A stretch of DNA of 64,000 nt from Volutella citrinella (taxonomy: Eukaryota; Ascomycota; Sordariomycetes; Hypocreales; Nectriaceae): assembly GCA_034401135.1 (NCBI GenBank), contig JAWZSP010000009.1, positions 806,001 to 870,000 of the forward strand, written 5' to 3'. How positions within the stretch are numbered: the stretch's first letter is position 1; the number at the start of each line of letters is the position of its first letter. This document shows positions 19,574 through 51,699 of the stretch, piece by piece. The notes under the pieces were generated by a model. It saw only the letters and a list, made by a program, of their open reading frames with translations. It made no database searches and was not told the DNA's origin. The position numbers and the translations under genes are program-made.

Positions 19574-20359
19574 TGTAGCGGGAGGGGGCGGGGTTCAGAC
19601 GGTGAGTAATGGGATGGTGAGTGATGTCGCGACGGTGTGGATGGTGTGAGGAGAGTCGGTCGGGGCAAAAATGCGTCGGTGAGGATGGTGCGAGGCTTTT
19701 GTAGCAGGCAAAGCGGCGCTGACGTTGGGGGCTGGTGCTGAGGACAGATGTTGCTAGTTGGAGATCATTATTAATGACGGGCGGCGAGGCTGGAACGTCT
19801 GGCCGCGATAATTGCGCAATTGGCCCCGCCATCCCCGGCCCTGAAACGTGCTCACCTTGGGTGAGGTAGCACCTGAAACCCGCCCAGAACGGCACCCTGC
19901 TTGCCATGAATCGAAGCCGCTTTCATGATGCACATCTGCCCCCCCTTTTTTTTTAAAATTTTTTTTTTAATCCTATCAATTCGCATTTGCAGTTGGACAT
20001 TGTCTCGTTTCAGTCGTTCTCTGGCCTCAAGCTTAGCCATAGCTGACGCAACTCGCTCAGAACAGGCTAACGCACATTCCCTGTACCAAAACCCAGATTG
20101 AGATCTACCGTCAATTCACCGCCAAAGCGTGGCGGGAGGAAGCGCCCGAATTGTATCATTTTGCAGGGTCTTGAGTGGGTTTGCCCTGCTAATTTTCCGC
20201 CACTTGCAGCGGCTGAGATGCCAGGGTGAGCTGTCAAGCCACCCTATGCCGGCACCTCGAGGTTTTCTGCGGCGGTCATGGTTCTGGTTTACATGATTCG
20301 TAGCAAAATTTCCATTAAATATCATGGACGCAGGTTTGGGGCCTGGTGTTGCGATGGAA
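19574..20359. other. Intergenic, promoter side of ATX1
   Basis: About 790 bases upstream of ATX1 and downstream of the 2EXR gene. It contains a homopolymer block near 19939-19968 (C7, T9, A4, T10). No gene is supported. Confidence 0.45.
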
Positions 20360-21367
20360 TCAGAAGGTGGGCCCGGTCCCCTTGGGACGAGGACCTCTCC
20401 TCGTGTCGTCTTGGGGCACCGTGAATGGAAGTTCGGGCAAGTAGTCGGCCCTCGTCCGCCCAACGGCTCGATTGAGTATGTCATTCAACGTGTGCCGCCA
20501 GAGGTGTTGGATCGCGACACGTTGGTACCTCCTTTCGCCCTCGAACACCCCACACCAGTGACCGTCGGCATCCGAGACCTTCTGCAGCCCCTCGATGCAC
20601 GTCCAGGCTAAATGACCAATGTCCTGGAAGGAGTGGCAAGTCCCTACCAGATACCCGTAAAAGCCGGCCCGCACGAATCGCCTTGTTCGTTCCTTGCAAA
20701 CCCACGGGTGCATCAGCCCTGTCGAGATGCCAACCCCGAGCTTCTCGGCACGGTTGGCCTCCACATCCTGCTTCGTCGGCCAGTACCTGTCAGTGTACCC
20801 GAAACAGATATCTGGGTCGTACTCAAAGGCTTTGCCTCGATTTGACGTCCGACTCTGGTCAGGCAGGGAACCCCAAGAGATGGACATGGAGACCAGGTTG
20901 GGAAACGGTCGGGCCATATCGCATGGAGTCAGCGACGCCCTGGACTGTTCGTACGGCACTATCAGGTGCTGTATCTGCATCGCGAGGTCTGGTACCGTCT
21001 CCCCATCCTGTTCAACGATGCTGTGGCACTGGAAAAAATCGCGACAGAGCCGTAGCGGGACGAAAAGTGCATCCCTCGCTGGGTCCCAGGGCCGGGACGG
21101 CCGTTTTCCGTCGTCGCCCGAGAAGCCCTGTTCACGGTACCAAGCGTGTACCACTTCCCACGCCTCGTAGCTGATGAAGGCCTGTGGCATCACCGGCGCC
21201 CAGACTGTCGCCTGGATTGGCGCACTTTTCCCATCCGAGTTCTTGATTTCCAGGTCCCTGGCCTGCAGCCGGTGGTAGGAGCTGGTGGTGGTTGGCAGCG
21301 AGTACTCCCAAATGATGAGGCGTATCTCGGTAGGTAAGGATGTGAATAGGTGGAACTCATCATCCAT
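20360..21367 (-). CDS. 2EXR-domain (F-box-like) fungal protein
   Basis: A 335-residue protein with an N-terminal FHLFTSLPTEIRLIIWEYSLP-type motif, the signature of the fungal 2EXR family. The family is very large in filamentous ascomycetes and has no defined biochemical role. The start at 21367 is chosen because it sits directly before that motif; an upstream in-frame ATG at 21562 would add 65 residues without family features. The rest contains aromatic-rich segments such as RPFPNLVSMSISWG and CFGYTDRYWP that match the usual long 2EXR C-terminus. The end is Pro/Gly-rich. It is divergent from the gasdermin-like gene. Confidence 0.75.
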   Translation of the reverse strand: MDDEFHLFTSLPTEIRLIIWEYSLPTTTSSYHRLQARDLEIKNSDGKSAPIQATVWAPVMPQAFISYEAWEVVHAWYREQGFSGDDGKRPSRPWDPARDALFVPLRLCRDFFQCHSIVEQDGETVPDLAMQIQHLIVPYEQSRASLTPCDMARPFPNLVSMSISWGSLPDQSRTSNRGKAFEYDPDICFGYTDRYWPTKQDVEANRAEKLGVGISTGLMHPWVCKERTRRFVRAGFYGYLVGTCHSFQDIGHLAWTCIEGLQKVSDADGHWCGVFEGERRYQRVAIQHLWRHTLNDILNRAVGRTRADYLPELPFTVPQDDTRRGPRPKGTGPTF

Positions 21368-22452
21368 GTTGAGCAATTGTGAAAAATAAACAAGAGTTGG
21401 TCGAATAGCGAGGAACAGATTTTGCTTGTTGGAAGCGAGATCGACTTGGATGATGGGAATTTCTTCGTCTTTTATATCACAGCACGGAGAAAGGTTGCAT
21501 AAAAGACTCCAGCAAGGTTTCATGGGTTTTTTTCTTCCTATCAAGGTCTTGGGTTCAGTCAATCAAGGTGTTTGGTGCTCCATTGGGGCTTGCAAACTCG
21601 ACTGAGGTGGATGGATCGGAGATGAATAGGTCGCGACTTTGCATCAAGTCAATGTCAAGGTTATAAAAAACAATAGTAAAAGATTGTGAAACCTTCATCG
21701 ATTGAGCTCTCAATCACAGCCGTAGCCACTTTAATCAGCAAGCTTTGACAGACGCATGAGAACCCTGGAAGTGACGGCTTCTTCACATTACCCGCAGTCT
21801 TCTCCGAGGAGCTTTAACTGACGGCAATCAGAAGAAACCTAAACGAATTTATCAATTCATTCGACAACCTCAAATTATCAACTACCCATTTGCGAAGGAT
21901 TTAATTAAAAGGTCGGACGTGACGGCGCCGGCAGACTAACTAAGATGCACACCCAGATACAAATGGCCTATAGAAGGACTTTACTACAAACTGCTCATTC
22001 CCAGCAATCGCCAACTGAATGTCTTGAATGCCAAGTTTGATAATTCGTGCTAGGAGGCACTGGTCAATGTGCTAATATCCCAAGGCCGTGCCAACATCAT
22101 GACGGCCACCATATTCCTATCCCAGCCTGCATCCCAGCCAACATACGTCTAAAATACAAGCAATAACATTGGTTACCAAAGAGTAAAATCGAGTACATCG
22201 ATTACACCTCCTATCCTTCACACATTATCAAGGCTGCCCGAAATGTTGCAAATACCATGTCCTCACACCACCCCACCCGAACGCTTCCATGAGGAGCCTG
22301 TGTGACCCTGTGCGACCAATCAGTTCCCCTGGATATATGCACAGCTGACGGCATGGCCACAATGTGCCTCAGCCTTCCTGAGGTCTTCGAGAACTCGTGG
22401 ATGCCTGCCTAGCTTTACGTCTCTGCTCCTTGTTGTTTATAGAAGCGGCACA
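21368..22452. other. AT-richer divergent promoter region
   Basis: About 1.1 kb between the 2EXR gene and the gasdermin-like gene, visibly more AT-rich than the housekeeping blocks. No open frame with features was seen. It presumably carries the gasdermin promoter. Confidence 0.45.
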
Positions 22453-23351
22453 ATGGTCAAATCGTATGTCCTCGCCCCCAACTGGACGACGGCGCCGCCG
22501 CCGGACGGCCCTATCCAGCTTGGCCACGTCCTCGACGACCTGACCGAGATGGTACCCCTCAATCGGCGCGACCTCGTCGAGATACCAGAAGGCGACATCA
22601 ACCCCGCCCACATCCAGTCCGGCTTCACAACCTCCCGCAGCAGGCTTGTCTCTGGCGAGCTGGGGGGTTTCGCTCGGGTCATGGGGCTGGTTGGTGTCGG
22701 GGCGGCGGCGGACATTTACTACAAGAAGGACAAGAACGATGTCCTGTCTTGCAAACAGCTGGAGACGCTCACCTTTGACCCGACGTCAGAGTACATCTCC
22801 AAGAGCGCAAAGTTGCCAGATGTGGACAAGTACTTGAAACTGCGAAAGTACAAGGATCCAGTCTATCGTGAGTCTCGTGCCTCTAGCCACATCCGAGTCC
22901 AGCCAGCCGGGCCCTTCTGACTCTCGCAGTGGTTACGGGACTAAAGATTGGCCGAGGAGGCTCCCTTCAAAGCACGTATAGTAAGGAGAAGGGGGTCAAG
23001 CTGGATGGAGGCCTCACGCCCGCTGGCAGCCCGGCCCAGGTCGGATTCAAGGGCGGGCTTTCCAAGGCTACGGGAGAAGGCGAGAGCTGGGAGGATGCCT
23101 CAGACTTTATCGTCGCCCTTCGCGTCAAGAAGATCTGGTATCATCGAGGAGAGCTCAAGGACGAGACGTACCGGGAAAAGGTGGTGATGCAAGGCGCGAA
23201 CCCGGAAGACCAAAGCCCAATGACTCTCCTGTTTGACGACGAGGTCAAGCCAGATGAGATTTTTAGCGACAATGATTTGACGGTCGAGAAGGATACGGAA
23301 GATGGCGAGGAGGTTGTGTGGATCGTTCCCAAGGACGATGCTGCTGCTTAG
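22453..23351 (+). CDS. Fungal gasdermin-like pore-forming cell-death protein (HET-Q1/RCD-1 type)
   Basis: Two exons, 22453-22867 and 22930-23351, around a 62-base intron give 278 residues; the length of Podospora HET-Q1 is about the same as I recall it. Order of features resembles the mammalian gasdermin N-terminal pore domain. LETLTFDP and a helix (about residues 110-135) are followed by a PVYLVTGLKIGRG strand that matches the YVVMEVVETV region. Then come a Gly/Lys-rich stretch and an FIVALRVKKIW strand matching the LAFRVRQL strand. The last 50 or so residues are strongly acidic (17 Asp/Glu in 52) and may be the inhibitory tail removed by proteolysis. It is convergent, at 55 bases, with a subtilisin-like protease gene, the arrangement known for het-Q1/het-Q2. 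The identity is inferred from pattern and context, not from a search; otherwise it is a conserved fungal hypothetical protein. Confidence 0.68.
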
Positions 23352-23406
23352 AGCTACAAAGTTGAACGAACGGAATTCCAGGATATCATTATGCCAAGTA
23401 CTCCAT

Positions 23407-26334
23407 CTACACCTTTTCTAATGCTTCCTTAATCTTGCTTATTGCGTCCGTCTCGGTTGAGTTCCCGCTCCACATCCTTCGCCACGGCATTACAAAGTCA
23501 TAGCCATCCCGGGACGAGGGTTCACACATGGCCACCATGATATGTCTCATCCCCGCGCAGGTGAAGGCGTTCATCCTCTGCGTCTGCGTCATCAGGCCGC
23601 GGTCAGCCGCGACTTGAACGAACCGCAAAACATTGGCAATGATGCCGGCCGCGACTGGGGCCGCGAACGAGGTGCCCGAGACGTAGTGGCCCTCCTCCTG
23701 CTCCCACTCGCAGGGCACGCAGACACCCAGCGTGCTGAGGTTGTGCGCCCGGTCCCATGGCGACGGGTTGAGGCCGCTCTTGTTTCCGTTCCCGTCGCCG
23801 GCGTGGATGCATAGTACCTGGTCCAGCTTCGCCGGGAACGATCTCGATTCGTTGCTGCCATAGTTTGACGCTGCGGCTGTGCAAATGATGCCTTCAGCCT
23901 CTGCGAGTCTTATCACTCGCCTTATAGCCTCGTTGGACTCCGTCATACCAAACGACATGTTGATAATGTGGACCTTTTGCTCTACTGCCCACTTGATGGC
24001 CTGTTATTGCCATGTGTTAGGAAGCCTTTGATCTACAGTGGCCTCCGGCTACTCACCTCTACAATGTGATCGGTCCCGTCAACGCTGTGGCCGTTTGAAA
24101 TCTTCGCCACAAACAAGTCGGCTTCCGGCGCCATCTTTAGGACAAGTGCTGCAACGTTTGTCCCATGCCCATCAGTGTCAACAACCGGGACGTCATGCAA
24201 GAAGGATTGCTGGCTCTTTATCGGCGGGTCACGATTAACCCTATTCTTTCGTGCCGCCCTGAAAAACACGTTCTTGTCATCGACGCCAGTGTCAAGAACA
24301 GCGACTCGGATCCTCATGTCGCACGGGAGGTCTTGGATGTGTTTGGTATAAAACTGGTCGGCTCTCTCTAGGAATTCATTCGCCCACGCACAGCTAGCAG
24401 GATATCAGTACGGTGTCCATGAAATGGTGTTGTAAAAAACTTACTACGGATCCATTGGCCCTTTCTCGAATTTCATCATTGTGACATCGAAAAGGCCCCT
24501 GGGTGAAGATGTGCGTTTTGTGATTACCGGCCGAGAAAAGTTGGTTTCTTCCATACTGCTTGGTACTGGTGTGAGGTTCTGCATCGAGTCCGGGTTGTCG
24601 AGCTTTGATGAGCCTTTCTTCTCCATGACTTGTCTGGGAACTGAGAACTTTTTCGGTTCATTGAGCTCTCCTTTTGTGACGTAGGCTGTGCTCCAAGCCT
24701 CCTTAAGTTGCGAGACGGCATTGCGAATAACTGTTCGGCATTGCATTTCTTCGCTTTCTGCGTCTTCGTCGTCGTCTTTATTGGCCTGGAGGCACTGCTT
24801 GATGGCGTGCACATACGGTGCCACCACACTCTGCGTGATTGTTTCGGTTTGCAGTTCGGCCAGAAGAGAAATATCCAAGCGTCGCTTGAAAGGTCCTAGG
24901 GTCTTCCCACAAGCAATCTCCATGAGCAGCTTGGCGAACGCAACCAAAACCGGAAACTTCCTCCCCAGTCTTGTCTTTGTGCTCTGATCTTGGGAGGAGA
25001 GGCAGTAGTTCAGATACGGATTGTACATCTCGCAGGCTGTTTCCTGGGAAGATTCAAATAAGAAATAGACGTCGCTGGCATTCCAAGAACAACCATCCAT
25101 TCCTTCGCCGTACATGCGTAGCAGCATGCGGCTAAGGTTGAAGGCTAATATTACCTTGTCATACGGCCGAAGGGGATCGAAGTCTGCGTCAAAGATCTCT
25201 GCTAGAGATAGAGTAGGCCATATTGGCGGGCTGGGAATGACTGTCGAAGCCTCTGGGTCCCATAGAATCCCATCTTTATGAACCAAGGCATGAAGCGTCT
25301 CCTCATCCTCGAGGCAGTTTTGAATTGTCCTGCACGCGTGTTTCATGACCTTTAACGGAGCTTTCGTTGGTGGCCTGGACCATCGTTAGATACTTGAGGC
25401 GATACACCGAGTTGGACTTACAGATGTGGGACGGCTTCAAGTACCGCCTCTTGCCACTGTCCTTCTGCCAATGAACAGGAGAGAAACATCTTGTGGGCTA
25501 AGGAATCGATCGGATCAAAAACCTGAAGCTTGGCAGTGTGGGGGCCTTGACATCCGGTAATGTGGATGTGATCCATTAGATCTGTCATCAACCTCTGCAA
25601 AGGTTCCTTGATACTGGCTGCCTCAGCATCGTCCAGCCTGGACTCTTCCTCCGGCTCCTTCCAGCTGTCGGGAGTTTCATGGATGTCTTGCGTTTTCTGT
25701 GCATAGCGAATCGAGTTGTTCGTGTTGAACTTTGTGGCCGTTTCCTCAGCTCTCTTGGTTTCTTCATTGGTGTTGGGGAGGTTGATGAGAAGAGACAGGT
25801 CATTGTCCTCTGACGGCTGAGTTGCTTTCCTCAAAAGAGCCTTGATTTTGGGAAACTCATCGTGCTCGGCATCGTCCTCCTGCTGCTCCGCGGCTGACAG
25901 ACGTTTGGTTTGTGAATCCAGCCCCCGAGAAGAAGTCTACCATAGTCCTCAGTGAACACATTTCATCATAGGCTAGGACTCTACAGCCAGTGCTATGGAG
26001 GTGCCAGGATGCATTTACTGACCTGGGATCTCCCGGGGGATCCTTCGTGAGCGGCAAGAACCTTGTCGTCAATCAGGCTCTCAAGGAGAGTCTTTAGTTC
26101 GTGTACATCTTTCAGAAACTGCTTGTACTCCAAGAGACCCATATCTCGATCCGTGCTTAAATTGAGAAACATCTGGTCCAACTCCAAGCTGAGAGCATCC
26201 CGTGCATTGAGGACGGCCAAGCTGGTGACCTGGCCCTGACCGCGGTCTATCTGCCTGGAGACGAGAGGCGTCAGGCTCTGGCGTATGTCGGCCAGGACCC
26301 CTAGATCAGACTCATCCAGCTCTACTCGCGACAT
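23407..26334 (-). CDS. Intracellular subtilisin-like (S8) protease with N-terminal regulatory domains, HET-Q2-like
   Basis: Five exons (26334-26023, 25936-25422, 25374-24445, 24393-24057, 24000-23407) join in frame to 895 residues. There is no signal peptide or propeptide. Residues 1-110 form a helical, acidic domain. Residues about 280-500 resemble the DUF7580-type domain of fungal NLR-like and prion-associated proteins (TLSLAEIFD, LAFNLSRMLLRMYG, DVYFLF). The C-terminal third is peptidase S8, with catalytic Asp620 in VAVLDTG, His662 in DGHGTNVAAL, oxyanion Asn744 in AASNYGSN and Ser809 in SGTSFAAPVAAG, so all catalytic residues are present. Family knowledge: HET-Q2 is a similar cytosolic S8 protease of nearly 900 residues that cleaves the HET-Q1 tail. 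It is convergent with the gasdermin-like gene and divergent from the NLR-like gene. The role as gasdermin activator is inferred. Confidence 0.85.
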
Positions 26335-27112
26335 GTTGACGACGGGCGATGCAAGTAGAGCTGATAGAGGGCTGTGAGGGAGGGCTGTGCGCCATGGGAT
26401 GATTGTCCAGCTCCTCCTCAGCCGTATGCACGCACACAAGAAAGTGATTGGTTATGCCCGGTGCGCTTAGCAAATCGACGCACAGTGACCACATACACAT
26501 CTCACACAGTGGGGAGGTCCAGATAGGCTTTGGTTAGTACATTGGCATTAGCGGTATAGGAGAGGTGCTAAGCATCGAAGTTGTGTTTTGGCAGCTAGCC
26601 TCGGACATTCAAGCTAAATTTGATGTTACGGGTCGTATAAAGGTAGTAGATGGCCTACCTAAGAGCTGTCCGTCGTAAACTGCTCAACATGGATTGTACA
26701 GTGTCGTACCCTATCAGAATCACGTGCACCCGGCGGGGTCCTCGAGGCTACAGCGCCTGCAGGGCACTGTGTCCCTCAGCGACACCTTCGCTGCTTTCCA
26801 AATATCTCATCACCCCTGCATCCTGCCCTATAGTTGCGGCGCTCGGATCTCGTGAGTCGTAGGGCTCGAATACGACAAGGATGAACAAAGGAATTTACGC
26901 CAACGCTTTGTCTCCGGTCGAGCCATAGCTCGGTTTACGCAGTCTATTTGCTGTCATCCAGTGGGCTGTGCTGTCTGGACCACCACAAAGGGGGCACTAC
27001 AGAGATATCTTGCATCACAGCCGACCCTATCTCTCCTACTCGGCCTTGACAACTAAAGAATTCCACCGACTGTTCAGCTTCGCCATACAGATCAAGAGAC
27101 TTGGGAGGAAAG
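26335..27112. promoter_or_regulatory. Shared divergent promoter region of protease and NLR-like genes
   Basis: The start codons of the two genes face away from each other across 778 bases, and no gene fits between. This would allow joint control of the protease and the putative sensor. I see no convincing named site. Confidence 0.4.
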
Positions 27113-30100
27113 ATGGCTGCTCTCCCCCCGCAACGAGAAAGAGAGGCTGAGCTCGGGGCCGAGTCGTTGTCAAGAAACATCTTCGATATCGCCGACGACT
27201 GCAAACTGCTCTTCTCCAAGTATGTCGGCGGCGACCCCTCACAGTCCGAGTTTCTCGCGAGAGCTGATCTCCAACAACAACGCTTCTATGTCTGGGCATC
27301 CTACCTCGGCGTGTTTGCGCCATTCAGTGCGTCGCTCGACAAGCGCCTGGAGGGGAGCGATGAAATACGCAGCCTTGTAATTCGGATGCTCACCGTACTT
27401 CAGAGGAACTTGCATTTTCGTAAGGATTCTTGCTTTCAAACCCTCGTCGCATCCATCAGCAACACTCACCATTTCTAGTCGTTTCAATCGATAATACCGA
27501 TGGCACAAATTCCACTCGTCTCAAAGGCACACCAGCTGAGGCTTTGGATGCTATTGATAGTACGATGAACCGGCTCAATCGCCTTGGGATCACCATCAAA
27601 AAGTATTCCATCTCATCTCTTGATGATCGCATCAACGCCTTTGTTCGCAAACATGGAGATCACGACTACACCGAACTCGCAAGAAACATCATCCGATTCA
27701 AGTACAAGACTGCATCTCCGTCACTTCAAGAGCATTTGGCGAACAGCATGTCTTCAAGACGAGAACGCCTCCGTTATCTTCACCGCCATCACTCGAAGCT
27801 AAGTGGCCAACACGCGAGCCAACCCAATGAGAACATTCCCGACCGGACGAAAAAGCTTCCTACCAATCTGAAGCCCATTAACGAGGGAGCTCAAGATGAA
27901 ACTCGCCCAAGCACCCAAAGCATGGAGAAGGATGTGGCTCTACCCTCCTCACGCATTGTCCCCAGTCCGGGTCAAGCCGAGCGTTCCGAAACGAATGCAT
28001 CAAAGTTTTTACCCAGTCCATCCATACTGTCTAAGCTCAAACGCGAAGATGGCAGGTCCGTCGTATCTTCATCTAAGAAAACGTCAACTTCGATGGCAGA
28101 TGCGCTTGAGGATTACCCTGAGCCACCAAGAAGGCAACGTACCCAACCTGAACCGCCCTGTCAATATTGTTGTCAGCCGCTCCCTGATCGAGATAGGTTG
28201 CAGAAACCAAGATGGCAGTAAGTGCATTGTTCACCCAGCGCAGTTTGACTGCTCTAAAAGATGTGAAACAAATGGTAACTGAATTTATAGGCGCCATGTT
28301 GACAATGATTTGCACCCTTTCATTTGTATCTCAGACAAGTGCCCCGATGGCCCTCAAAGCTTCAAGGATTACAAGGCATGGGCTCAACATATGCGAGAAG
28401 CCCACACAACCAAATGGCCACAGCAAGTTCACAAGCCTGTCATGTGGGCATGCGACATTGATCACGACACTGAGGAATTTATCGAGGAGGGCCTTTTCAA
28501 GTCCCATCTCGACTCACGGCATTCGGATTGTACTCCACAGGAAAAACATGCCATTGCCGAATCATGTCAAATGCCTCGAAAGCGCCGCCAAAACACTTGT
28601 CCGATCTGCGAGTATGACCTTTCAACCAACCCACCAGCTCAGTCCAAGAAACATGTCACAATTGCCATTTCGCAGCTCAAAGAAGAAAGTCAACTCAAGT
28701 TTATGGCGAAGCACGTAGCAGGGCACCTGAAGCAGTTGGCCTTCGACAGCGCCAGGAATATAGGAGATGAACTCGGCGACAGCTCCGTGGAAAGCACCAA
28801 CACCTCAGAGGCCCGTCGCCCCAGCGGTGCAGATGAAATGAATGATTTGCCATTAGGATTTGTGGAAATGGTGGGTAAGCTTTCGGCATTCGATGAGGAC
28901 TGGTCCCCTTCGGACATTGAGGGCCTCAAACAGCCACTGGACGAGCCATCGAGAGAGGATGTTCAGAAATGGAGGGAGGTGGAGCAAGAAATCTCGGGCA
29001 AGAAGCAACTTGACATGAGGCAAAACACTCCCGATCCTATCTTGGAGCACTTCAAAGCCCGTCGAAAAGATGCAGACACCAGTGAGCATCAGGCTGATAC
29101 AGACTTGCCTGGGTCGCAGAGCCCAGCGCCCACCACGATATCGGACATATTCAGGCGACTTGACTCGCAAAACGAAAGGTTTAACCAGTTCCGCAGAATG
29201 CGAAAACAAATATTCGACAGCATTGATGCCACACTCACGCCTATAGCCGACTGTGGACAGAAGTGGTCGTGGGTGACCGAGGACATTTTTCATGCGATGG
29301 TCTACCTCGTCAACAGTGCTCATGATGTTTCGTCAGCCTACGATGGCATCATAGAACTTCTTGATCGCCTAAAGGTGAGCCCATCTCCAGGTTTGATATT
29401 CGTACACACTGACACATGCAGGGATCAACATCAGTGCTGCGGATTGATAGTAGCAGCTCTGGTGATGTCTTCCGTCCAGAGATTGGAAAGATCTTTTCCG
29501 CCATATTACAAGTCATTGTTTTGGCCACACAGGAGATTCACCATGACCGCGTGCGCCCGTACTTGAAATCGGTCTTCGCCTCCGAGTCTCCTGCCATGCA
29601 GGCCCTGCAGCAGCTTGAAGCTCTCGTGGTAGAGGAGTTCCCACCGACTGACAAAGGGAATTCCAACACGAGCCCTGGAAGAATGGAAACACCGCTACCT
29701 GAAGTTAACCAGAATATCGCTATACTACGCGATGAAGCTCGCCAAAGGGCCAAAGCATGGCAGATAGACGACCAACTGAGGGCTCTTCTCCAGCCGTCGC
29801 CTTTCCCAGAAGACTCATTCCGTTCGTTCAACAAATCAAGAGTTGAAGGCACCGGTGACTGGGTTCTCTCGGACGAAAAGCTGCAGGCTTGGTTCAGTGG
29901 TGGTAAGCCGTATCTTTGGATCATTGGCCCAGCTGCCGCTGGGAAAACCTATCTTGCCACACGAATAATTGCTTGGGGATTGGAAAATCTCAAGACCATG
30001 GCTTACTTCTACTTTCAAAAAACCAACCCGAAAACACGATCCGTGCGGCAAGCACTACGAGATGTGGCATACCAGATCAGCGAGAGAAGTTTCGAATATG

Positions 30101-33100
30101 GCAAAAAGTTGCTGCAACTCAAAACTTCGCCGGAGAACCTCACTGGGGTCGTTGCTACACATCGACAGCTTCTCAATCTACCATTCAGAGGCGATACATA
30201 TATGGGGGATATTTTTATAGTCCTGGACGGTATTGATGAAGCTGATGGCGATGAGATGAGAACGTTTGTTGCAAACCTAAAGCCTCCAGCTCACCAAAAG
30301 GTTCAGATTGCATTCGTTACCAACTCCCACTTTTACTTGAATATCTTGCACGCTGACTCTTATTACTTTAAAAAAACTCTATATCTCGACGACGATCTCC
30401 TTGCCGACGACGTTAGGCCGTTCATTTCAGATAGCGTCTTCCGTTCCCCCATTCTGAGCAGACAGCCTCCTACGATCAAGCAACAGATTGTCGAGGCCAT
30501 AGTTAGGCTGGCTGCCGGCCGATTCAGTGTCGCTCAGCTAATGATCCAAGAGATTGCTCGGGTTCGACGGCCAAGCTCCATCTTGAAAACGATTAATTCA
30601 TATCGCAAGGGAATCAACGAGATGGTTATGATGCAGTTGCTCCGGAAACTCGGCGTAGCACTGTCAACTGAAGAGTGCGAGGATCTCAATGAATTACTGA
30701 GCTGGGTAGCTTGCACGCATGGTGCCTTAAGCTTGTCCCACCTCGAAGCAATTCTCAGGTACAAAGTGGGAGACGTTCCATTTGACCTGGAGGGAAGTCT
30801 CCGGCAGAAATATGCATCCTTCTTCAAGCTCGAGAGAGAAGACCGGAAGAGCACGGAAGATTTGATGCGGGAACGGCAGCGACGCCAACCCTTTGAAGAA
30901 GCGTCTGAGACCAAGCAGAATCGTCAGTCCAGCCAACAGGGACGGTTGGATCGGAATCAAATCAAATCAGCAGACGATGACGAGTCCGAAGACGAGTTTT
31001 TTTCTTCGGACCAGGTTGAATTCCGCTCAAATAAGGCCACTACACGGGTGGTATTTTGGCACCAATGGATGAAAGACGTCTTCAATATGCCGAATATCAC
31101 CAGCATGGCGGGCACATCAGCCCTCGGATTTGATCCCATCGCAACTCGAGTCCGAATCCTGGACATTTTCTTCTCCAGTTTAACCAACACGACAGAGTTC
31201 AGGAGACATTTCAGCGATGATGAGATGTCCGATTGCAAAGTATTGCAAGAGTACGCTGCGCTGAATTGGCAAGACGTCTTCTCATCCATCAATCTCGTGA
31301 CTGTCCCGAAAGCTGATAAAGTCAAGCTCGGGTTGCACTTATACTCCATGCTTACTAGCTACGGCGCAGTTCTGAACTGGAGCCTTGTGTGCTTTGAAAG
31401 CCGGGGAATTGAAATACTGAGCAACAAGGCCATCAAAAACCTTCAAAGGTGGCTGAGGGATGACGACGTTGTCTCAAGCCTCTCGGTGGGCGCTCAACAG
31501 TGGGTGGCCCGGGCGGCCTACGAAGTTCCAGTACTTCTCGAACCAATGGGAAGATCTTACTGCGAAGCATGGCTCAGTGATTACAGTTCCAAGTATTACA
31601 AATGGGGCTCTGGTCATGACAGCCGCGTGATCCCACCCATCTTCTGCTTCGAAATGGTGGATATCATCAGCTCAATTGGAACCTCTCCATCTTTTGACTC
31701 ATGGAACTCCACAAGAGTTGAGAAACACCGTCTTCCCTTATCGAGCCGAATTCTCAATGCTGTGCAGTGGTCATCTATTCAAGAATCCGCGGGTTATCAC
31801 CACCGCCTGGGAGAAACATACCAGACGGGATGTTTACGTCAGGAAGCACTTTCTCATTACGGCAAGGCCATGAGTCTGGACAGTGGCCGTGCTGACACCG
31901 CTTACCTTGCTGCCCAATGTCTGTATGAGGATGATCAGTTCGTTCTTGCGCTGGATAGGGCTCTGAATAGCGAGGCCCTTGAAGATGCAGCTCGCCTTGA
32001 CGGTGCAACAGAGCGATCTACCAAAGACACCGAATCTCTGCGTTACAAGATTCAATTTCTGGTTGCCGAGTGTTTCGCTGCAATTGGGGAAATTGAGAAG
32101 GCCCTTGAATATTACAGAAAAGCCAGCCAGACCCGCATCAAGACTCGTCACAGCAAGGGAGAGCGGTTCGAGGCCGAGGTTGGCTTGTTAGAGCTTCTCG
32201 TTCTGGAAAACCGCCTTGGCGATATAGTTGCATTTCTCCATGAGTTAGCCAGTCTCACCGATCGCGAGAGCAATGCCAGTCACCTCGATAGCTTTCTTCT
32301 GGAGAAGTGCAGCCATCCTCTGGTCAATGACTGGATTCCTCGAGAAATCGGCAAGATCCCGGAGCCAAGCTTCTTCATTGACTCTCTGGAGGCCAATATC
32401 GACATTGCGGCCGCGCAGGGCGACGACCTAATAGCCTTGTACCTACGTTACGCCCTAGGGGGAACACTGGCATCGTGCCGCGACATGGCGGCTGCAATAT
32501 CCGTATTCAAAGGAATCACAGATGAGCCCCGACCCAACATGCGTGTCTCCAGACATCGCGTGATCAACATGGCCTACCGGAGACTTTCAACTTTGTACAA
32601 GGAAATGGTGATGCACACTGGCGCGACCACAACTGACGGCACAGAATGGATCAATAAGCTTAGTCTTCTTCTGAACGAGGAGACTACTGACCTGAATGGC
32701 TCCGCCATCAGTCTCACGAGAATTTACTTGCCAATAGTCTGGCGGCTGAGAGACTTTGAAGGGGATCGCATGGGAGCAAACAACGATGCTGACCAACTCC
32801 TTAAAGCCATTACGCGGGCCATCACAACAATTGGCCATGGCCTCGAAGAGCACACTCTGGAGAAGTTGATATTCATTCTCATTGCAGCCGATAGGATCGA
32901 GGATGCCCAGATTCTGTGCCAATCGACTCGAACGATGGATGCCCGCCGGTCTGGAAACACCGGCACCATCCCAAAGAAGCTTAGGATATTTTCGGAGGCT
33001 TTGGAGTGGTTCCGTCCCGGACAACCGGAGCCCGAGATCCAAACTCTGATGCAAAGATGCGGGCAATGCCTAAAATTCATCCCGCCTTCAGACGAATACC

Positions 33101-33327
33101 ACATGTGCCGCTACTGCTTGGAGCCCTACTGCATGACCTGCCTAATATTAATGACCAGGATGGTTGAGAACAATACGAGCGATGGGAGGCGGGATATGAA
33201 GTGCAAGCGCGATCACGAATGGTTTGTTGTACCGCCGCTTACAAAGGTCTTGGAACGGGGGATGATTCGGCTTCCTGACGACACTACTGTACCCTTTACT
33301 AAGTGGGTTCGTGGCTTCTTGGATTAG
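27113..33327 (+). CDS. NACHT/STAND NLR-like protein with zinc fingers and TPR-like repeats
   Basis: Four exons (27113-27419, 27479-28217, 28291-29374, 29422-33327) join in frame to 2011 residues. Order: a helical N-terminal domain (1-210); a Ser/Pro-rich linker; C2H2-like zinc-finger segments at about 330-490 (CQYC, CISDKC..H..H, CPIC); a Goodbye-like fungal STAND N-terminal domain at about 632-785 (IFDSID, VYLVNSAHDVSSAYD); a NACHT NTPase with Walker A GPAAAGKT at 879-886 and Walker B IFIVLDGIDEAD near 974-985; TPR-like repeats at about 1500-1620; and a C-terminal Cys/His zinc module at about 1923-1950. The layout is that of a fungal intracellular immune or allorecognition receptor. Codon use is less GC-biased than in ADH1 or the kinase gene. 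No catalytic effector domain was seen, so signalling to a separate effector is plausible but inferred. Confidence 0.8.
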
Positions 33328-34069
33328 TATGCAATTCTCTTCACTCACTCTTTTCCATTTCGGCTGGAGATTTCAAGTCTCGCTGAACTGGAAGGCTTTG
33401 GGTCGAGGGCTGCCAAATGGACTATCAAAACCGAGGAAGATTGAGCGCTGAGATTTAAAAAGTGGTGATTGATGGATATCATCTGATTTTTGAGCTTGTT
33501 TCCACCCGCATGGCTATCGTAAACCTGTTAAATGATATGAATGGCGAGCATGCCGGTGTGTGTATAAGTGATGGATCCCCCTCTCTGGGCTGGGAGCGTA
33601 TCTGATTCTGATCTTGCAGATGAAATAAACAGCCAAGAGGCCTAACCTCATTCCACGGTGCCATTGTATAAGTGGCTCGACTTTGTAATGCGTATTGTGC
33701 GGCAATCAAGCGTTACTCGCCTCTGTTAAGACGTGTCGGACGGGTGACGGCAGCACTGAGTGGGATACCAGAGAACACGACCATGCTACCCTACGGTTTG
33801 CACAGCCACTCTTCGTTGCCTCACAGCCCCAAAGCCAAAATTTCAAGGCAGCCCCACAACGGCAAGGCTGGCGAACACGGCGTGACACATCAGCAAACGG
33901 ATATTCTGTGCAGCCCGAAAGTTAACTTCCACTGAAGCATTGAGTCGCATACAATACCCGGCCTCGCAAAAAAAAAAAGAGGCAGCACTTGCGGCTTCTG
34001 GACTGGTCTCATCTCATCACCAAAAGCTCATTTGGCGGGGTACACATTGCCCCTCACCCCGCAGTCGGC
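33328..34069. other. Intergenic, promoter side of RQC1/TCF25
   Basis: About 740 bases without a supported gene; an A11 tract is at 33968-33978. The first in-frame ATG at 33989 would add 27 residues to the next gene but has no family support. Confidence 0.45.
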
Positions 34070-36144
34070 ATGTCGAGCCGACATTTGCGCAAGATCCAGA
34101 AGCAGCGTGAGCTGGAGCAGGCCGAGGAGACTGCAGAAAACCCTTCAGATGTGAGCGACGACGAGCCTGTGCCGGCTCCCAAGCCCAGGGTGAGTCTCTT
34201 TGCCGCACTGGGAGGTGGCGACGGCGATGGCGACGATGACGAGGAAAGCGAGCAGGAGGAGCAGAAGCCAGAGCCAGAAGAGCTGCCACAGCCCGTGAGT
34301 ACGGGCAAGAGCAAGAAGAAGAAGAAGAACAAGAAGAAAAAGGCCAAGGCAGTCGAACCGGCCGACGACGAGGACGAGATTGACCGCGCTATGAAGGAAC
34401 TCGGCATCAAGAACCAGCCCACACAAGCAGACGCCCAGGCCGCGGCTGAGAGCCAGCGTGTCAGTACACTGCTGAGCATTAACCCGACCCATCTAAGGGC
34501 CGACAATGAAATGGAAAAGATCTTTGGCCGTGAGGTTATCTCTGCCGCCGTTGCTGAGGAGAATGCAGAGCAGCAGCGCAACCGGCGCAACCGGACCACA
34601 GCCGCCGACCTCGAGACGTTCCTGCGCGGCCCGCCCAACGCCAAGAAGCTCAAGGAGCTATCGCGACGCCATAATGCCTTTATCCAGGGACGAGCGCATT
34701 GGCCGGATGCGACTGTGGGTGGTCTGCATCTCAAGGAGATTGAGAAGAGGGAGGGCGGGACCGAGTATGCCTACGAGTACGACTCAAAGTACGACAGCGC
34801 CCAGATGGCCTTCTTCCAGTTTGTTCAGCTGGGCGACCCCATGAGGATGGTCATGCTGCTACAAGAGCAACGTGAGTAGCCCGACAGATCTTGAGACGAC
34901 AGCTAACCGTCGCACGCACAGCCTACCACATCTCGACGCTCATCCAGGTCAGCATGGTGGCCAAGCAGGATCAGAACATGGCCCTGTCTGCCGAGCTATG
35001 TGAGCGCGCCCTCTTCTCCTTTGGCCGCGTCGCAAACACCGCCTTTCGCCGCGACATTGAGCAGGGCAAGGCGCGCCTCGACTTCCGCCGCCCAGAGAAC
35101 CGCCAGTTCTGGCTGGCGGGATACCACTACCTCAAGAGCCTCATCCGCAAGGGAACTTTCCGCACCGCGCTCGAGTGGGCGCGCCTGATGTACATGTTCG
35201 ACCCCAGCGACCCCTACGCCATGCGACACTTTATCCACTTCCTGGCTATCCGCGCGCGCGAGGAGCGCTGGCTGGTGGACTTTGTGGACGAGCTGGAGAG
35301 GGCGACGGAGAACCGCGACACGGCATACCTGCGGCAGACGCTTGTCTTGGCTAAGTTGAGTCTGGGTGACGCCGACGGGGCGCGAGAGGAGCTGCTCAAC
35401 GGCATGCGTAGGGTGCCGTGGCTCTACTGTGCGCTGTTCTCCGAGTTGAACCTCGACACGCCCCCTTCCATCTGGGGTATCAATGCGGATACGGATTCGC
35501 GTGCCTTTTGGACGCAGCTCTACGTCTACAACGCAAAGGATATTTGGAACAACACACAAGCCATTGAGCTTCTGCAGGATGTAGCCAACAAGATCCCCAA
35601 GATCAACAAGAGCTTGCTGCCGCACGACGACCCTCCGGCCGACCTTGGTGCCACCCGTCTCGTCTTCCTAGAGGGCCAGGGAAGCCTCATCACCCTAGCC
35701 CCGCGCGAGTTCTTGGAACGACAGCCCAACTACGAGTTCGACCCAGTGCCACCAGCAAAGGAGGACAACATTTTCACATCGGCGGGCGGCCAGCTCCCCT
35801 GGTCGCCTGGCAACAACAATTTCATGCCCCAGTTCCAGGCGCGCATGGATAGAGTGCTTGCGCGCCGTGCTAGGAGAGAGGGCGTGCCACAGGCCAACGT
35901 TCCAGGGGTGGAGGAAGAGTCGGATGACGACTTTGAGGAGCTACAGCGGCGCGAGGAGGAAGAGCTGCAGCGCGACATGGAGCAGATGCGCGAGGGCGAC
36001 GCCACGGGTGTGATTGGCCAGCTAATGCGGCTGCTATGGCGTAGACAAACTCCAGAGGCGACTGAGGAGGAAGCGACGGAGCCGATCGATGACGGGGACG
36101 AGACGGACGAGGAGTTCAATGTGCCCGGTGCGTGGCGGGCATAA
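34070..36144 (+). CDS. RQC1: TCF25/Rqc1 family ribosome quality-control factor
   Basis: Rqc1 works with the E3 ligase Ltn1/listerin and Cdc48 in clearing nascent chains from stalled 60S subunits; the animal homologue is TCF25. Two exons, 34070-34871 and 34922-36144, give 674 residues. The start at 34070 begins MSSRHLRKIQ, the usual beginning of the family. A long acidic stretch and a Lys-rich block (about residues 82-98) follow. The TCF25 domain begins near residue 160 (LLSINPTHLRADNEM) and includes HNAFIQGRAHWP, a helical-repeat array (ELCERALFSFGR, YLKSLIRKG) and DPYAMRHFIHF. The C-terminus is acidic and Glu-rich. The final window half also carries HEL2, an upstream stalled-ribosome factor. 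Confidence 0.9.
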
Positions 36145-47513: not shown

Positions 47514-48227
47514 TTATACAGCCTCCGTAATCCGCATCCCTTCGTCCAACGTCTCATGATGCGCACCCTGGTCAAACCGCCTGGCCAGCCAAGGAAACAT
47601 GTCTTGGAAGCTGAACAGGCGCTCAAAGATTATTTCCGCAATCAGCCTGTCTGTAACTGTTGAACAACCAGGCAGTGCCTCGAGCTCAATCCTCTTGGTG
47701 GCCGCGTCCAGTTCCCGCGGCGTGAGCTCGCCGTCTGGGCCCTCCGAGAACCATTCGTCTCGGTACATCGCGAGCGTTTCCAGCGACTGCGCGAGCTCCT
47801 GTGCTGTGAATACGTCCGGGAACGCGTCAATAAGCTTCCGTTCCTGGCGGTTGAGCTCCTCGAGGAGGGCGGCGTAGTCGATGTTGCCGTCTTGGTCGGC
47901 GTAGTCTGCCAGCATGGGGATGTGCGGGCGACTCTCTGGCTTTTGCTCCAGTCGTCTCTCTGTGTCGAGAGCAGCCTCGACCATTTTGACTATCCAGGCA
48001 AGATGTTCGAGTGAGTTGTTGTGGCTCCAGGCGATGTCGAATGCTTGCAGGAGCATGGCATGGTTCTCGCCCAGTGGCGACAGATCCAGCTCCTGAAGCT
48101 GCAGTCTGAGTCTGCGTGCCTCGAGATCCGTGGGTTGGCGGTTGAGTGAGTTTGCCATGTCCATATTTGGTGAGCTTGGCGAATCTGTTGCGTTCACTTC
48201 TGGTGAATATGGTGACTCGAGTGGCAA
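47514..48227 (-). CDS. Hypothetical acidic helical protein with two EF-hand-like loops
   Basis: A single exon of 237 residues; I do not recognise a named family. Two stretches look like degenerate calcium-binding loops: DQDGNIDY (about residue 115) followed by a helix, and GPDGELTPREL (about residue 170) followed by a helix. In both, the first loop position is not Asp, so calcium binding is doubtful. The N-terminal 35 residues are Ser/Pro-rich and disordered. An alternative start lies at the internal Met near residue 22. Good length, acidic composition and no internal stops support a real gene. Confidence 0.55.
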   Translation of the reverse strand: MPLESPYSPEVNATDSPSSPNMDMANSLNRQPTDLEARRLRLQLQELDLSPLGENHAMLLQAFDIAWSHNNSLEHLAWIVKMVEAALDTERRLEQKPESRPHIPMLADYADQDGNIDYAALLEELNRQERKLIDAFPDVFTAQELAQSLETLAMYRDEWFSEGPDGELTPRELDAATKRIELEALPGCSTVTDRLIAEIIFERLFSFQDMFPWLARRFDQGAHHETLDEGMRITEAV

Positions 48228-48579
48228 TCCCCTGTTTGCTTGCTGCTAAGATGAGAATAGAGCAGGGGAATAGAGCAGGGGTTTTGAATTGTCCGATGAG
48301 GTGAGAAGAACAAAACACTCATTCCGCGTCAATCCTCAAGATAACGACATTAATTCGGATTCACCTTGACTTGTGCCCATCAACTGTTGATGTGGATGTA
48401 GACGGCCTGCTTAAAAGGTGAGAGAAGTGCGAACTCGTTCACGTACAGGGAGCGCTGCTACTTGGCGAACAGCGTCATAGCAGACTGTTCGAGAGCCCTG
48501 CAGGCTTTATTGCGTATAGGTGTTCAGGTCACGTTCAGGATGTCCTTTCAGCCTACAGAAGCTGAGCTGTCTGCTGTTC
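48228..48579. other. Short intergenic region
   Basis: About 350 bases between divergent genes. Nothing specific was seen. Confidence 0.4.
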
Positions 48580-49545
48580 ATGCCTGGCGCTGGGTTACAC
48601 GTCAATGAATCACTGCCATATTTCTCGCCCCAGTGTTGGGCGATGCTTGCTGCCTCCTTGGCCCCACACTACATTACACTGTTCTTTTCTAACAACCTCA
48701 CCTCACTTTTTTCTTTCTGCTGCATTACATCATCTGCTGCTGGGGCAGAGCGTAGTTCCAAATTCCAACCACGCCCGAGATCCTTTACTCTGCAGAATAC
48801 CTGGCTTTCACCAACTCATTTTTCCTACCGCGTAGCAAAGTTTTACACCTCCCTTTCCCTCATTACGTTTTTCAATGCCCCGAACACAAAAAAGCGGAAA
48901 AGAGCCGAGGAGGCTGAAGCCGATGAGCCAGACATCCTCAGCCTCCCGCCGCCCCAGAATCGCCTTCACAGGCTAAACAGACCAAAGGTCGAGGTTGGTC
49001 TCATCTCCATGACACGGCTATTTTCTAACCGTATGTAACAGCCGACGGTCGAAGTCAAGACAGACCAGGACTTGAGCCCTAATTTCAGCGAAAACGTGAC
49101 CGCCTTGCTGCGACAGGTGAATGCCGAGCTTGATTCACGCAATGAAGGCCTCGAAAATACTCTGGCCTCTCCCAGAGCGCAACGAAACGACGTCTTTGGA
49201 AACCAGCCCGAGTCCAACCGTCCAACCACCTCGAACCCACTCTCACGTCGGTTCACCATTCTCGCCTCCGCGTTTCAGCTCATCCCACATCGCATACATC
49301 GGGCCAACGTCTCCAAGTGGATTGAGTGGCTGGCCCCCAAGGTTCTAAATAGAACTAGGGTGCAAAACATGCAAGACTGGCTGGAAACTGCACCAATGGG
49401 CCCGAGATTCTGTGTGGACGAAGTTGTAGAGATGGGCGAGCAAGCAGCGCCCGTCAGTGCCTGGTGCGTGAACCACGGCGGGCACTGTCGATATGTGCGA
49501 GTGGTTGACAACGGGAACGGAAGGTTGTGGGAACCGACAACATGA
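48580..49545 (+). CDS. Uncharacterised protein, 5' end uncertain
   Basis: The second half is credible coding sequence. A nuclear-localisation-like KKRKR segment sits near 48890. After a probable intron (48988-49041, weak GTCGAG donor, in frame) come a helical segment (ENVTALLRQVNAELDS) and a C-terminal block with LETAPMGPRFCVDEV and CVNHGGHC. The first 100 codons from the ATG at 48580 are hydrophobic and of odd composition, so they may be leader or intron rather than protein. A perfect GTATGT donor at 49031 also suggests a different gene model. No family recognised. The model as drawn is 303 residues. Confidence 0.4.
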
Positions 49546-50059
49546 ACGAAAATTATGGATTTTGACTGGCTTTGTAGAGCACGGCTTGAATCAACGAAGG
49601 CATCTTGAGGGTGTGAGATGTTTCACGTTAGTGACGTTACTGAGATCATAATATGATGACACCCATCCAACTTAATTGTTTGATCGGTTAACAGACGTTT
49701 AAGAAGAAGGGATTACTGCTTAAGCTTGAGATGCACACAAAAGTAGACTTTGAGAGGTAGAGGATGGAGGGAGAATTGATGTTATTATTCCCGCTATTGA
49801 AACCAAAGCGGTGGCTGGTGTCGGAGCTGCCTACCTCAATGTTGGTCTTTCTCTGAGTCAGGTCTGAGCCCTCTGACGGTCGCAGCCGATCTTGCCACCG
49901 ACACTGGCAGCTGTCAGGCGGTGGAGTGCCTGGCAGTTGTCAGACAAACGGCCCTTCAGCCATCCCATTAGATTTCCTATTCCTGTATCTCGCACAAACC
50001 ACCAAACACTGTTTTTCTGCAAACAACCCGTCCCACACCCACGCGTCTTCTCCTCGAAG
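49546..50059. other. Intergenic region
   Basis: About 510 bases, AT-richer at the start, C/T-rich near the next ATG. No gene was seen. Confidence 0.4.
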
Positions 50060-51211: not shown

Positions 51212-51699
51212 GGCTTTGCAGCCTGGTGGATGAGGGTCTCGAGCCATTTGGCTTGGGCACTTCAAAGAGTCACGGAATCTGGACACTTGGATCAAGCACC
51301 ATCTGCAGGACGTATTACACTGGGAAGAAGGTTGTTGTTTCTTGAGACTGAACCTCTTGACCAGTCTATGTAGTTGTATTTTACACCTTTGTAATATCGA
51401 CACTATGGATGTCAATATAGCAGTCAGACATGTCCTCGTCCATCCCTGAAGCATGAATGTTGTTGGCTGTTGCTGGCGACGTTGTTGTTTTGAAATGAGT
51501 CAACGCTGTGGAAGTGACCAGAGGAAGTGACATTGGGATCTCGGCCAACCAAATCGGGCCAATCGAAAACAAAGTGCCGAATTCACAACTCAGAGCAACC
51601 TCAGACACCTTTCATGTATTTAAACCCATCTTGCCACTCCCAGGATAATATTCTTTCTCCTCCAAACAAATATCTGCACACAAATCACATGCCCTAATC
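51212..51699. other. Intergenic region between tandem relatives
   Basis: About 490 bases with a moderately AT-rich tail before the next ATG. No gene was seen. Confidence 0.4.

What the first reader, a model, noticed from the sequence alone, without database searches (positions are those of the whole stretch)
22453..33327. Putative three-gene cell-death island: gasdermin-like effector, subtilisin-like protease and NLR
The 278-residue gasdermin-like protein is tail-to-tail with a cytosolic S8 protease of 895 residues, the gene order and sizes known for het-Q1/het-Q2 in Podospora anserina. A 2011-residue NACHT protein sits next to it, divergent from the protease. Seen directly: gene order, lengths, complete catalytic residues and the Walker motifs. 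Inferred: that the NLR senses, the protease cleaves and the gasdermin forms pores. An NLR beside the known pair would make a full sensor-protease-effector pathway in one locus.
Basis: partly seen in the sequence, partly recalled or inferred. Interest (0 to 1): 0.92.

Follow-up and report, generated by a model that had tools for sequence, protein, structure and literature searches.

The report
Fungal gasdermin cluster with swappable partner
A fungal genome carries a three-gene cluster (a pore-forming gasdermin, a protease and an immune-receptor-like protein), and the same genome holds related clusters in which the parts at both ends appear to have been exchanged, which suggests a modular self-destruct system broader than the gasdermin-protease pairs already known.

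Summary
Observation confirmed. Spliced models give a 278-aa gasdermin (matches RCD-1 by sequence; its 69%-identical relative also by fold), a tail-to-tail 895-aa DUF7580 + subtilase S8 protein with an intact triad, and a divergent 2011-aa Goodbye-NACHT-TPR NLR. Gasdermin-protease pairs are known in fungi; the NLR link is real: all three genes carry consecutive locus tags in Fusarium lateritium. What is constant is not the NACHT part but a ~500-aa helical plus zinc-binding "N-module" at the NLR's N-terminus. In the window's own genome N-module genes lie within 3 kb of DUF7580 genes at 11 loci (11 of 14 N-module loci found; 11 of 13 DUF7580 loci over the Pfam cut-off). The modules' trees correlate (r 0.69, permutation p 1.5e-4), while both ends vary: NACHT-TPR, NACHT-ankyrin, kinase, RhoGEF, (Conoideocrella) TPR-CHAT on one side; S8 protease or PNP on the other. 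Four of six gasdermin loci are N-module + DUF7580-S8 + gasdermin. Best reading: the input protein activates the DUF7580-protease, which cleaves the gasdermin; both steps are inferred. DUF7580 occurs in no paper of the library searched.

The parts
22453..23351 (+). gasdermin-like gene (exons 22453-22867, 22930-23351), 278 aa
   Evidence: gene model; RCD-1 match E 1.4e-7; 44 homologues; RCD-1 fold of the 69%-identical relative
23407..26334 (-). DUF7580 + subtilase S8 protease gene, 5 exons, 895 aa
   Evidence: gene model; Pfam; homologues; fold of the 59%-identical relative
24714..25615 (-). DUF7580 domain (residues 212-496), perhaps kinase-like, spanning one intron
   Evidence: Pfam E 1.2e-35; a profile of 7 DUF7580 stretches matches 4 PDB sequences at E <= 10, all kinases, E 0.16-0.33, (weak)
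23623..24311 (-). Peptidase_S8 domain (residues 614-824) with D620, H662 and Ser of GTSFA, spanning one intron
26335..27112 (.). 778-bp intergenic stretch between the divergent starts, possible shared promoter
   Evidence: gene models
27113..33327 (+). N-module - Goodbye - NACHT - TPR gene (NLR), 4 exons, 2011 aa
   Evidence: gene model; Pfam
27113..28879 (+). N-module (about residues 1-545, across three exons): helical part plus C2H2-like zinc-binding part; the conserved partner of DUF7580
   Evidence: alignment of 13 copies; each of the 11 own copies is recovered by the profile of the others, worst E 8.2e-44
29096..29442 (+). Goodbye domain (residues 618-717), spans intron 3
   Evidence: Pfam E 7.2e-11
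29848..30282 (+). NACHT-type NTPase (NPHP3_N)
31807..32124 (+). weak TPR region (about residues 1506-1611)
   Evidence: Pfam TPR_2 E 5.2e-4, below its cut-off

Best explanation
The locus is a three-part regulated cell-death cassette. The divergent NLR is the input protein: its NACHT-TPR part responds to a trigger, and its N-terminal N-module passes the state to the partner. The 895-residue protein is the middle component: a DUF7580 domain (perhaps kinase-like) receives the signal from the N-module and releases its C-terminal subtilase. The subtilase removes the short C-terminal tail of the gasdermin, whose N-domain then forms membrane pores and kills the cell. SHOWN by sequence: gene order, domains, intact catalytic motifs, gasdermin homology (and fold, for a close relative), conservation of the trio in a second species, recurrence of N-module + DUF7580 at 11 loci, correlated divergence of the two modules, differing C-terminal parts. 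INFERRED: that N-module and DUF7580 proteins act on each other, the direction of signalling, cleavage of the gasdermin, pores and cell death. My estimate that the three genes form one functional unit is about 0.85; that the signal runs input -> DUF7580-protease -> gasdermin, about 0.55.
For: Consecutive locus tags for all three genes in F. lateritium. Clusters with gasdermin + DUF7580-S8 + N-module gene elsewhere in the same genome: C2:5.48 Mb and C8:3.21 Mb (same order and strands as the window) and C8:0.53 Mb (another order). N-module genes lie 0.9-2.9 kb from 11 of 13 DUF7580 loci over the Pfam cut-off (11 of 15 with the two below it); 10 of these 11 pairs are divergent; 11 of 14 N-module loci found by five queries are so linked, against ~4e-26 for uniform random placement within 5 kb (treats loci as independent). 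Mirror-tree r 0.69, p 1.5e-4 for the 11 own loci. Differing C-terminal parts. In Conoideocrella an N-module-TPR-CHAT protein lies two locus tags from the gasdermin on a contig of the same length, so there the N-module is fused to a protease of a class known to activate a fungal gasdermin (PMC12881547, section read).
Against: No interaction, expression or activity data. Adjacency could persist by duplication of whole pairs. Two DUF7580 loci over the cut-off (C2:1.054 Mb, with a gasdermin; C1:3.489 Mb) have no N-module in the stretches held. Of the DUF7580-S8 genes, C1:0.30 Mb has no gasdermin match in the stretches searched, and C1:5.82 Mb has only a weak two-piece match 237 bp beyond the protease frame (E 0.0028, 0.011). 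The module trees disagree for loci C, J, K and M. HET-Q1's P1 residue F238 is not clearly mirrored: the window has F240, 38 residues from the end, but the aligned column in relatives is not F (by eye). An NLR homologue was found only in F. lateritium among the species with adjacent gasdermin and protease, not in F. nematophilum, F. solani or F. falciforme (threshold 1e-30, candidates of 1106-3519 aa only, so not proof of absence). The F. lateritium protein lacks the Goodbye stretch and the C-terminal quarter. In the sister cluster B the join of N-module and kinase needs an unproven intron.
Confidence: 0.6

Rival explanations
1. A known two-gene gasdermin-protease cluster with an unrelated NLR gene beside it in a gene-poor or immune-gene-rich stretch.
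For: 97 NACHT (NPHP3_N) matches in the genome, so a random locus has roughly a 4% chance of one within 10 kb (reckoned with 90). Gasdermin-protease pairs are common in fungi (PMC10197012, passages read).
Against: F. lateritium keeps all three; the N-module recurs beside DUF7580-S8 + gasdermin in three other clusters of the genome, in two of them without a NACHT match; tree correlation.
Confidence: 0.08
2. The N-module protein is a restraint rather than a trigger: it binds or represses the DUF7580-protease (or, through its zinc-binding part, controls transcription from the shared promoter), and loss or damage of it releases the protease, as a guard would.
For: Divergent arrangement over a short intergenic stretch (778 bp in the window); conserved zinc-binding cysteines and histidines; some N-module genes show no Pfam domain in the downstream frames scanned (H, L and E).
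Against: C-terminal parts in several copies are signalling domains (NACHT, kinase, RhoGEF), and one is a CHAT protease itself, which fits activation better.
Confidence: 0.2
3. The pairs stay adjacent only because whole pairs were duplicated; the N-module and DUF7580 proteins work in separate pathways and share a promoter.
For: Congruent trees are also expected from duplication of pairs.
Against: Copies are scattered over six contigs (C1, C2, C3, C6, C8, C9) at low identity and stay paired while the C-terminal ends differ; recombination strong enough to exchange the ends would be expected to separate unlinked functions (inference).
Confidence: 0.12

Closest known systems
Fungal gasdermin + Q2L protease two-gene clusters (Clave et al. 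2022, not held; seen only through reviews PMC10197012, PMC10989679, PMC12881547)
   Same: Gasdermin gene beside an S8 protease gene; multidomain protease; the 2025 review mentions proteases fused to predicted kinase-like domains, which may include DUF7580.
   Different: The passages and sections seen describe gasdermin units as two-gene clusters, including NLRs that carry the protease themselves. Here a separate, divergent third gene of a constant family with variable C-terminal parts belongs to the unit.
het-Q1/het-Q2 of Podospora anserina
   Same: 278-residue gasdermin of the same length; subtilase of the same peptidase family.
   Different: het-Q1/het-Q2 are idiomorphs at one locus, HET-Q2 is 388 aa; here the genes are neighbours and the protease is 895 aa with DUF7580.
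rcd-1 of Neurospora crassa (PDB 8jyx, 8jyy, 8jyz)
   Same: Closest solved structures by sequence and by fold.
   Different: RCD-1 is activated by meeting its other allele without cleavage (review passages and section); here a protease and an input protein are linked.
nwd2/het-S type NLR-effector pairs with amyloid signalling
   Same: NLR gene beside the gene of an effector (review passage).
   Different: No amyloid motif was looked for here; the proposed link is N-module to DUF7580. Profile comparison showed no homology between the N-module's helical part and the N-terminal region of the DUF7580 proteins.
Mammalian inflammasome (NLR - caspase-1 - GSDMD)
   Same: Works-like comparison: sensor, protease, gasdermin as three separate proteins.
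   Different: Subtilase instead of caspase, DUF7580 instead of CARD/PYD (recalled), genes clustered; resemblance of logic, not shown to be of descent.

Membership tests
Gasdermin family (fungal) | Sequence and fold of the gasdermin pore-forming domain | tested here: met
   RCD-1-2 E 1.4e-7; Foldseek ranks 1-14 all RCD-1, best E 5.9e-6, then bacterial gasdermins. The model is of P0001 (69% identical), mean pLDDT 60
Gasdermin family (fungal) | Short C-terminal inhibitory tail removed by proteolysis | not testable with these tools
   A conserved acidic C-terminal stretch exists; the cleavage site is unknown
Gasdermin family (fungal) | Membrane pore formation and cell death | not testable with these tools
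   -
Q2L gasdermin-controlling proteases | S8 protease domain with intact triad, gene within 10 kb of a gasdermin gene | tested here: met
   the two genes end 55 bp apart
Q2L gasdermin-controlling proteases | Cleaves its gasdermin | not testable with these tools
   -
Fungal NLR (NACHT-TPR) | NACHT-type NTPase plus an N-terminal effector/signalling domain | tested here: met
   NPHP3_N E 1.2e-24, Goodbye 7.2e-11; Walker A seen in the sequence
Fungal NLR (NACHT-TPR) | C-terminal superstructure-forming repeats | tested here: inconclusive
   TPR matches (best E 5.2e-4) are below their Pfam cut-offs
het-Q1/het-Q2 locus | Two idiomorphic alternatives at one locus; HET-Q2 of 388 aa | tested here: not met
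   Gasdermin and protease lie side by side here and the protease has 895 aa (definition)
N-module + DUF7580 pair (proposed here) | Homologous ~500-aa N-module next to a DUF7580 gene | tested here: met
   11 loci of the same genome and F. lateritium (22, 23)
Protein kinase superfamily (for DUF7580) | Kinase-like fold | tested here: inconclusive
   All 4 PDB matches at E <= 10 are kinases, but E 0.16-0.33; the rows shown by the fold searches were filled by the S8 domain

The most novel reading that the evidence does not exclude
Filamentous fungi carry an undescribed modular immune platform made of two divergently encoded proteins: an input protein (N-module plus exchangeable sensor or signalling domains: NLR, kinase, RhoGEF, PHD, CHAT) and an output protein (DUF7580, perhaps kinase-like, plus exchangeable effector enzymes: subtilase, PNP-type nucleosidase, or none). 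N-module and DUF7580 form the fixed, co-evolving interface, like a plug and socket, and many gasdermin-protease clusters are one output version of this platform with a third gene, the pore former.
Probability: 0.5. Interest if true: 0.9.

Novelty: new variant of a known kind. Interest (0 to 1): 0.78.

Why it matters
The 2025 review of fungal cell death names the stimuli that activate the sensors of these pathways, and the control of the gasdermin-cleaving proteases, as open questions (PMC12881547, sections 20-21). A separate, conserved partner that keeps its N-terminal module while its other part varies gives a direct handle on both: the gasdermin assay is a simple read-out, and comparison of sister clusters of one genome can show which input controls which output. 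By logic it would be a eukaryotic parallel to bacterial defence systems that pair exchangeable sensors with protease-activated effectors (PMC12799240, outline with abstract and introduction seen).

Tried and rejected
Unrelated-neighbour reading: rejected on the F. lateritium trio and the paralogous clusters. Homology between the N-module helical part and the N-terminus of DUF7580-S8 proteins (which would suggest like-with-like binding): hhalign probability 0.1, not supported. DUF7580 as a kinase fold: only weak profile hits; the rows listed by the structure search and by the VIA-align second look were filled by the subtilase domain, so open. CHAT protease in this genome: the six-frame Pfam search gave no match at E <= 0.001. 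A HET-Q1-like F cleavage site: F240 does not look conserved in relatives (by eye). Taxonomic identity of the genome: not established; named gasdermin relatives are mostly Sordariomycetes (class recalled), best Fusarium nematophilum 69%.
Full report
WHAT IS THERE. The three genes exist as described. The gasdermin gene (22453-23351, +) has one intron and encodes 278 residues; the protease gene (26334-23407, -) has four introns and encodes 895; the two genes end 55 bp apart. The NLR gene (27113-33327, +) has three introns and encodes 2011 residues; 778 bp separate its start from the protease start, head to head. Splice sites are my own choice of GT-AG pairs that keep the frame; no transcript was available. 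Pfam finds DUF7580 and Peptidase_S8 in the protease, Goodbye, NACHT-type NPHP3_N and weak TPR in the NLR, and nothing in the gasdermin. The gasdermin matches Neurospora RCD-1-2 in the PDB at E 1.4e-7; 44 homologues were found, and a model of the 69%-identical Fusarium nematophilum relative (mean pLDDT 60, pTM 0.63) finds RCD-1 chains at ranks 1-14 and bacterial gasdermins at ranks 15-20. The region at 20-34 kb has a lower GC content (0.49-0.56) than most of the window.

DO THE THREE GENES STAY TOGETHER? The homologue tables give locus tags and contig lengths, which serve as a synteny test. In Fusarium lateritium the gasdermin, protease and NLR homologues are ACHAPT_009169, 009170 and 009171, all with contig length 445,589. 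The NLR homologue aligns over residues 17-616 (54%) and 828-1506 (36%) and lacks the Goodbye stretch and the last quarter, which may be real or an annotation effect. Only 4 proteins reached the NLR search threshold (E 1e-30), and F. nematophilum, F. solani and F. falciforme are not among them.

THE GENOME'S OWN CLUSTERS. Searching the window's own assembly (45.1 Mb, 26 contigs) gave gasdermin matches at six loci (two further queries, added only a 33-codon fragment at C7:1.222 Mb with E 0.016); 42 S8 matches, counted exon by exon; DUF7580 at 13 loci over the Pfam cut-off and two below it; 97 NACHT matches. The N-terminal ~576 residues of the NLR, which contain what is here called the N-module, were used as query, then four further members. 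In all, 14 loci were found: 11 lie 0.9-2.9 kb from a DUF7580 match, 3 are near none of the 15 DUF7580 loci (C9:1.358 Mb, C2:4.367 Mb, and C1:3.644 Mb, which matches only over the zinc-binding part). The last two queries added no new locus. From the other side, 11 of the 13 DUF7580 loci over the cut-off have an N-module neighbour; C2:1.054 Mb and C1:3.489 Mb do not, in the stretches held, nor do the two below the cut-off have a hit nearby. Orientation is divergent in 10 of 11 (at C8:0.53 Mb the gasdermin gene lies between the two) and convergent at C1:0.57 Mb. Uniform random placement would give 11 or more of 14 within 5 kb with probability about 4e-26; this treats loci as independent, which duplicated loci are not, so it shows only that chance adjacency is excluded.

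Gasdermin loci: A (window), B (C2:5.48 Mb) and C (C8:3.21 Mb) have gasdermin (+), DUF7580-S8 (-), N-module gene (+) in the same order; E (C8:0.53 Mb) has N-module (-), gasdermin (-), DUF7580-S8 (+); D (C2:1.05 Mb) has gasdermin (with one TGA inside the match, an intron or a defect) and DUF7580-S8 only; F (C9:0.256 Mb) has gasdermin and an S8 without a DUF7580 match. So 4 of 6 gasdermin loci are three-part clusters with the same partner family. A possible seventh is locus I (C1:5.82 Mb): 237 bp beyond its DUF7580-S8 frame, on the same strand, an 89-residue frame matches two conserved gasdermin stretches in the right order, but weakly (E 0.0028; 0.011); it could be a divergent gasdermin, a remnant or chance.

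ONE FAMILY, DIFFERENT ENDS. An alignment of the 11 own N-modules with the F. lateritium and Conoideocrella copies shows a shared helical motif (W..., SLD.RL) and conserved CxxC and H..H pairs. Leaving each of the 11 out, the profile of the others recovers it, worst E 8.2e-44; profiles of single clades recover all members of the other clades (8 of 8, 10 of 10, 8 of 8), worst E 1.2e-9, and none of the shuffled decoys appears at E <= 10. What follows the module differs. In the same open frame or a single protein: Goodbye, then NACHT-TPR in the next exon (A), PNP (below its cut-off)-NACHT-ankyrin (C), RhoGEF (I, E 3.5e-24), DUF7896 (K, E 2.8e-31), protein kinase (M, E 2.6e-39), TPR-CHAT (Conoideocrella). 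In a further frame, so that the fusion is not proven: protein kinase (B, E 3.7e-9; same reading frame 15 bp on, with stop codons between that an intron would have to remove), weak SH3 (G, below cut-off), PHD (J, E 2.7e-6), most of the ubiquitin-like domain (K). No Pfam domain in the frames scanned: H, L, E. DUF7580 genes continue with S8 (A-E, I, J) or PNP_UDP_1 (G, H, L); nothing else was found in the frames scanned at K and M, and the C1:3.489 Mb gene was not scanned. Distance matrices from the two module trees correlate (r 0.69 over the 11 own loci, permutation p 1.5e-4; r 0.78 with F. lateritium). A and B group together in both trees (with Conoideocrella in the N-module tree), as do G-I-H and E-L, although I differs from G and H, and E from L, in the effector enzyme. 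Loci C, J, K and M are placed differently in the two trees, so agreement is partial. A and B share gasdermin at 59%, S8 part at 48% and N-module at 43% identity, with no match between the parts that follow the module. This is the strongest argument that the module, not the NACHT, is the tie to the protease. A caveat: own-genome copies other than the window's rest on open-frame pieces without curated splicing.

HOW IT PROBABLY WORKS. Input protein -> N-module -> DUF7580 -> released effector enzyme; with S8, cleavage of the neighbouring gasdermin and pore formation. Steps after domain recognition are inferred from fungal and mammalian gasdermin biology (reviews PMC10197012 and PMC10989679 seen in passages; PMC12881547 passages and sections 20-21). 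DUF7580 may be kinase-like, but the evidence is weak. The input could instead restrain the protease; the data do not separate these.

AGAINST THE READING. At J, and perhaps I, a DUF7580-S8 gene has no gasdermin in the stretches searched, so the protease has other targets there or the gasdermin lies elsewhere. D has no N-module. The cross-species support for the full trio rests on one species, and for N-module with gasdermin on two. Duplication of whole pairs can by itself give congruent trees.

AGAINST WHAT IS KNOWN. About 80% of fungal gasdermin genes lie near protease genes, ~63% near S8 genes (PMC10197012, passage). The 2025 review speaks of two- or three-gene clusters for necroptotic-like and pyroptotic-like pathways in general and of kinase-like fusions to the protease; the sections seen describe gasdermin units as two-gene clusters. 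The word DUF7580 occurs in 0 papers of the library, and four other searches (each listing only the top 10-20 papers) showed no title or abstract start on such a third partner. The primary paper of Clave et al. 2022 is not held, so its tables could contain such neighbours.

Noticed in passing
window 20001-34000: Lower GC (0.49-0.56) than most of the window; a conserved Tcf25 gene follows (ORF 34891-36144).
   Followed up: partly
window 20360-21562 (-): 2EXR-domain gene (E 2.3e-8) next to the gasdermin in the same low-GC stretch.
   Followed up: no
window 48001-54000: Second lower-GC stretch (0.51-0.53) with long open frames (50495-51211, 52041-52805) without Pfam match.
   Followed up: partly
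L011 (C3:454238-456340), L013 (C1:567182-569146), L041 (C9:1963198-1965153): DUF7580 fused in one open frame to PNP_UDP_1 instead of a protease, each beside an N-module gene: candidate nucleoside-cleaving outputs.
   Followed up: partly
L053, C1:5826934-5827200 (+): 89-residue frame 237 bp beyond a DUF7580-S8 frame with a weak two-piece gasdermin match (E 0.0028; 0.011): divergent gasdermin, remnant or chance.
   Followed up: partly
C1:0.30 Mb (L054, L055, L058): DUF7580-S8 gene paired with an N-module gene but without a gasdermin match in the stretches searched; its substrate is unknown.
   Followed up: partly
G000 C7:1222126-1222224 (-): 33-codon stretch 67% identical to part of the locus F gasdermin (E 0.016), possibly a further gasdermin or a remnant.
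   Followed up: no
G000 C4:4184080-4187749 (-): S8 matches lie 2-4 kb upstream of a NACHT match on the same strand, possibly an NLR with its own N-terminal protease.
   Followed up: no
L024 (C9:256849-257472) and C9:254067-254927: Gasdermin divergent from an S8 gene without a DUF7580 match: a plain two-gene cluster in the same genome.
   Followed up: partly
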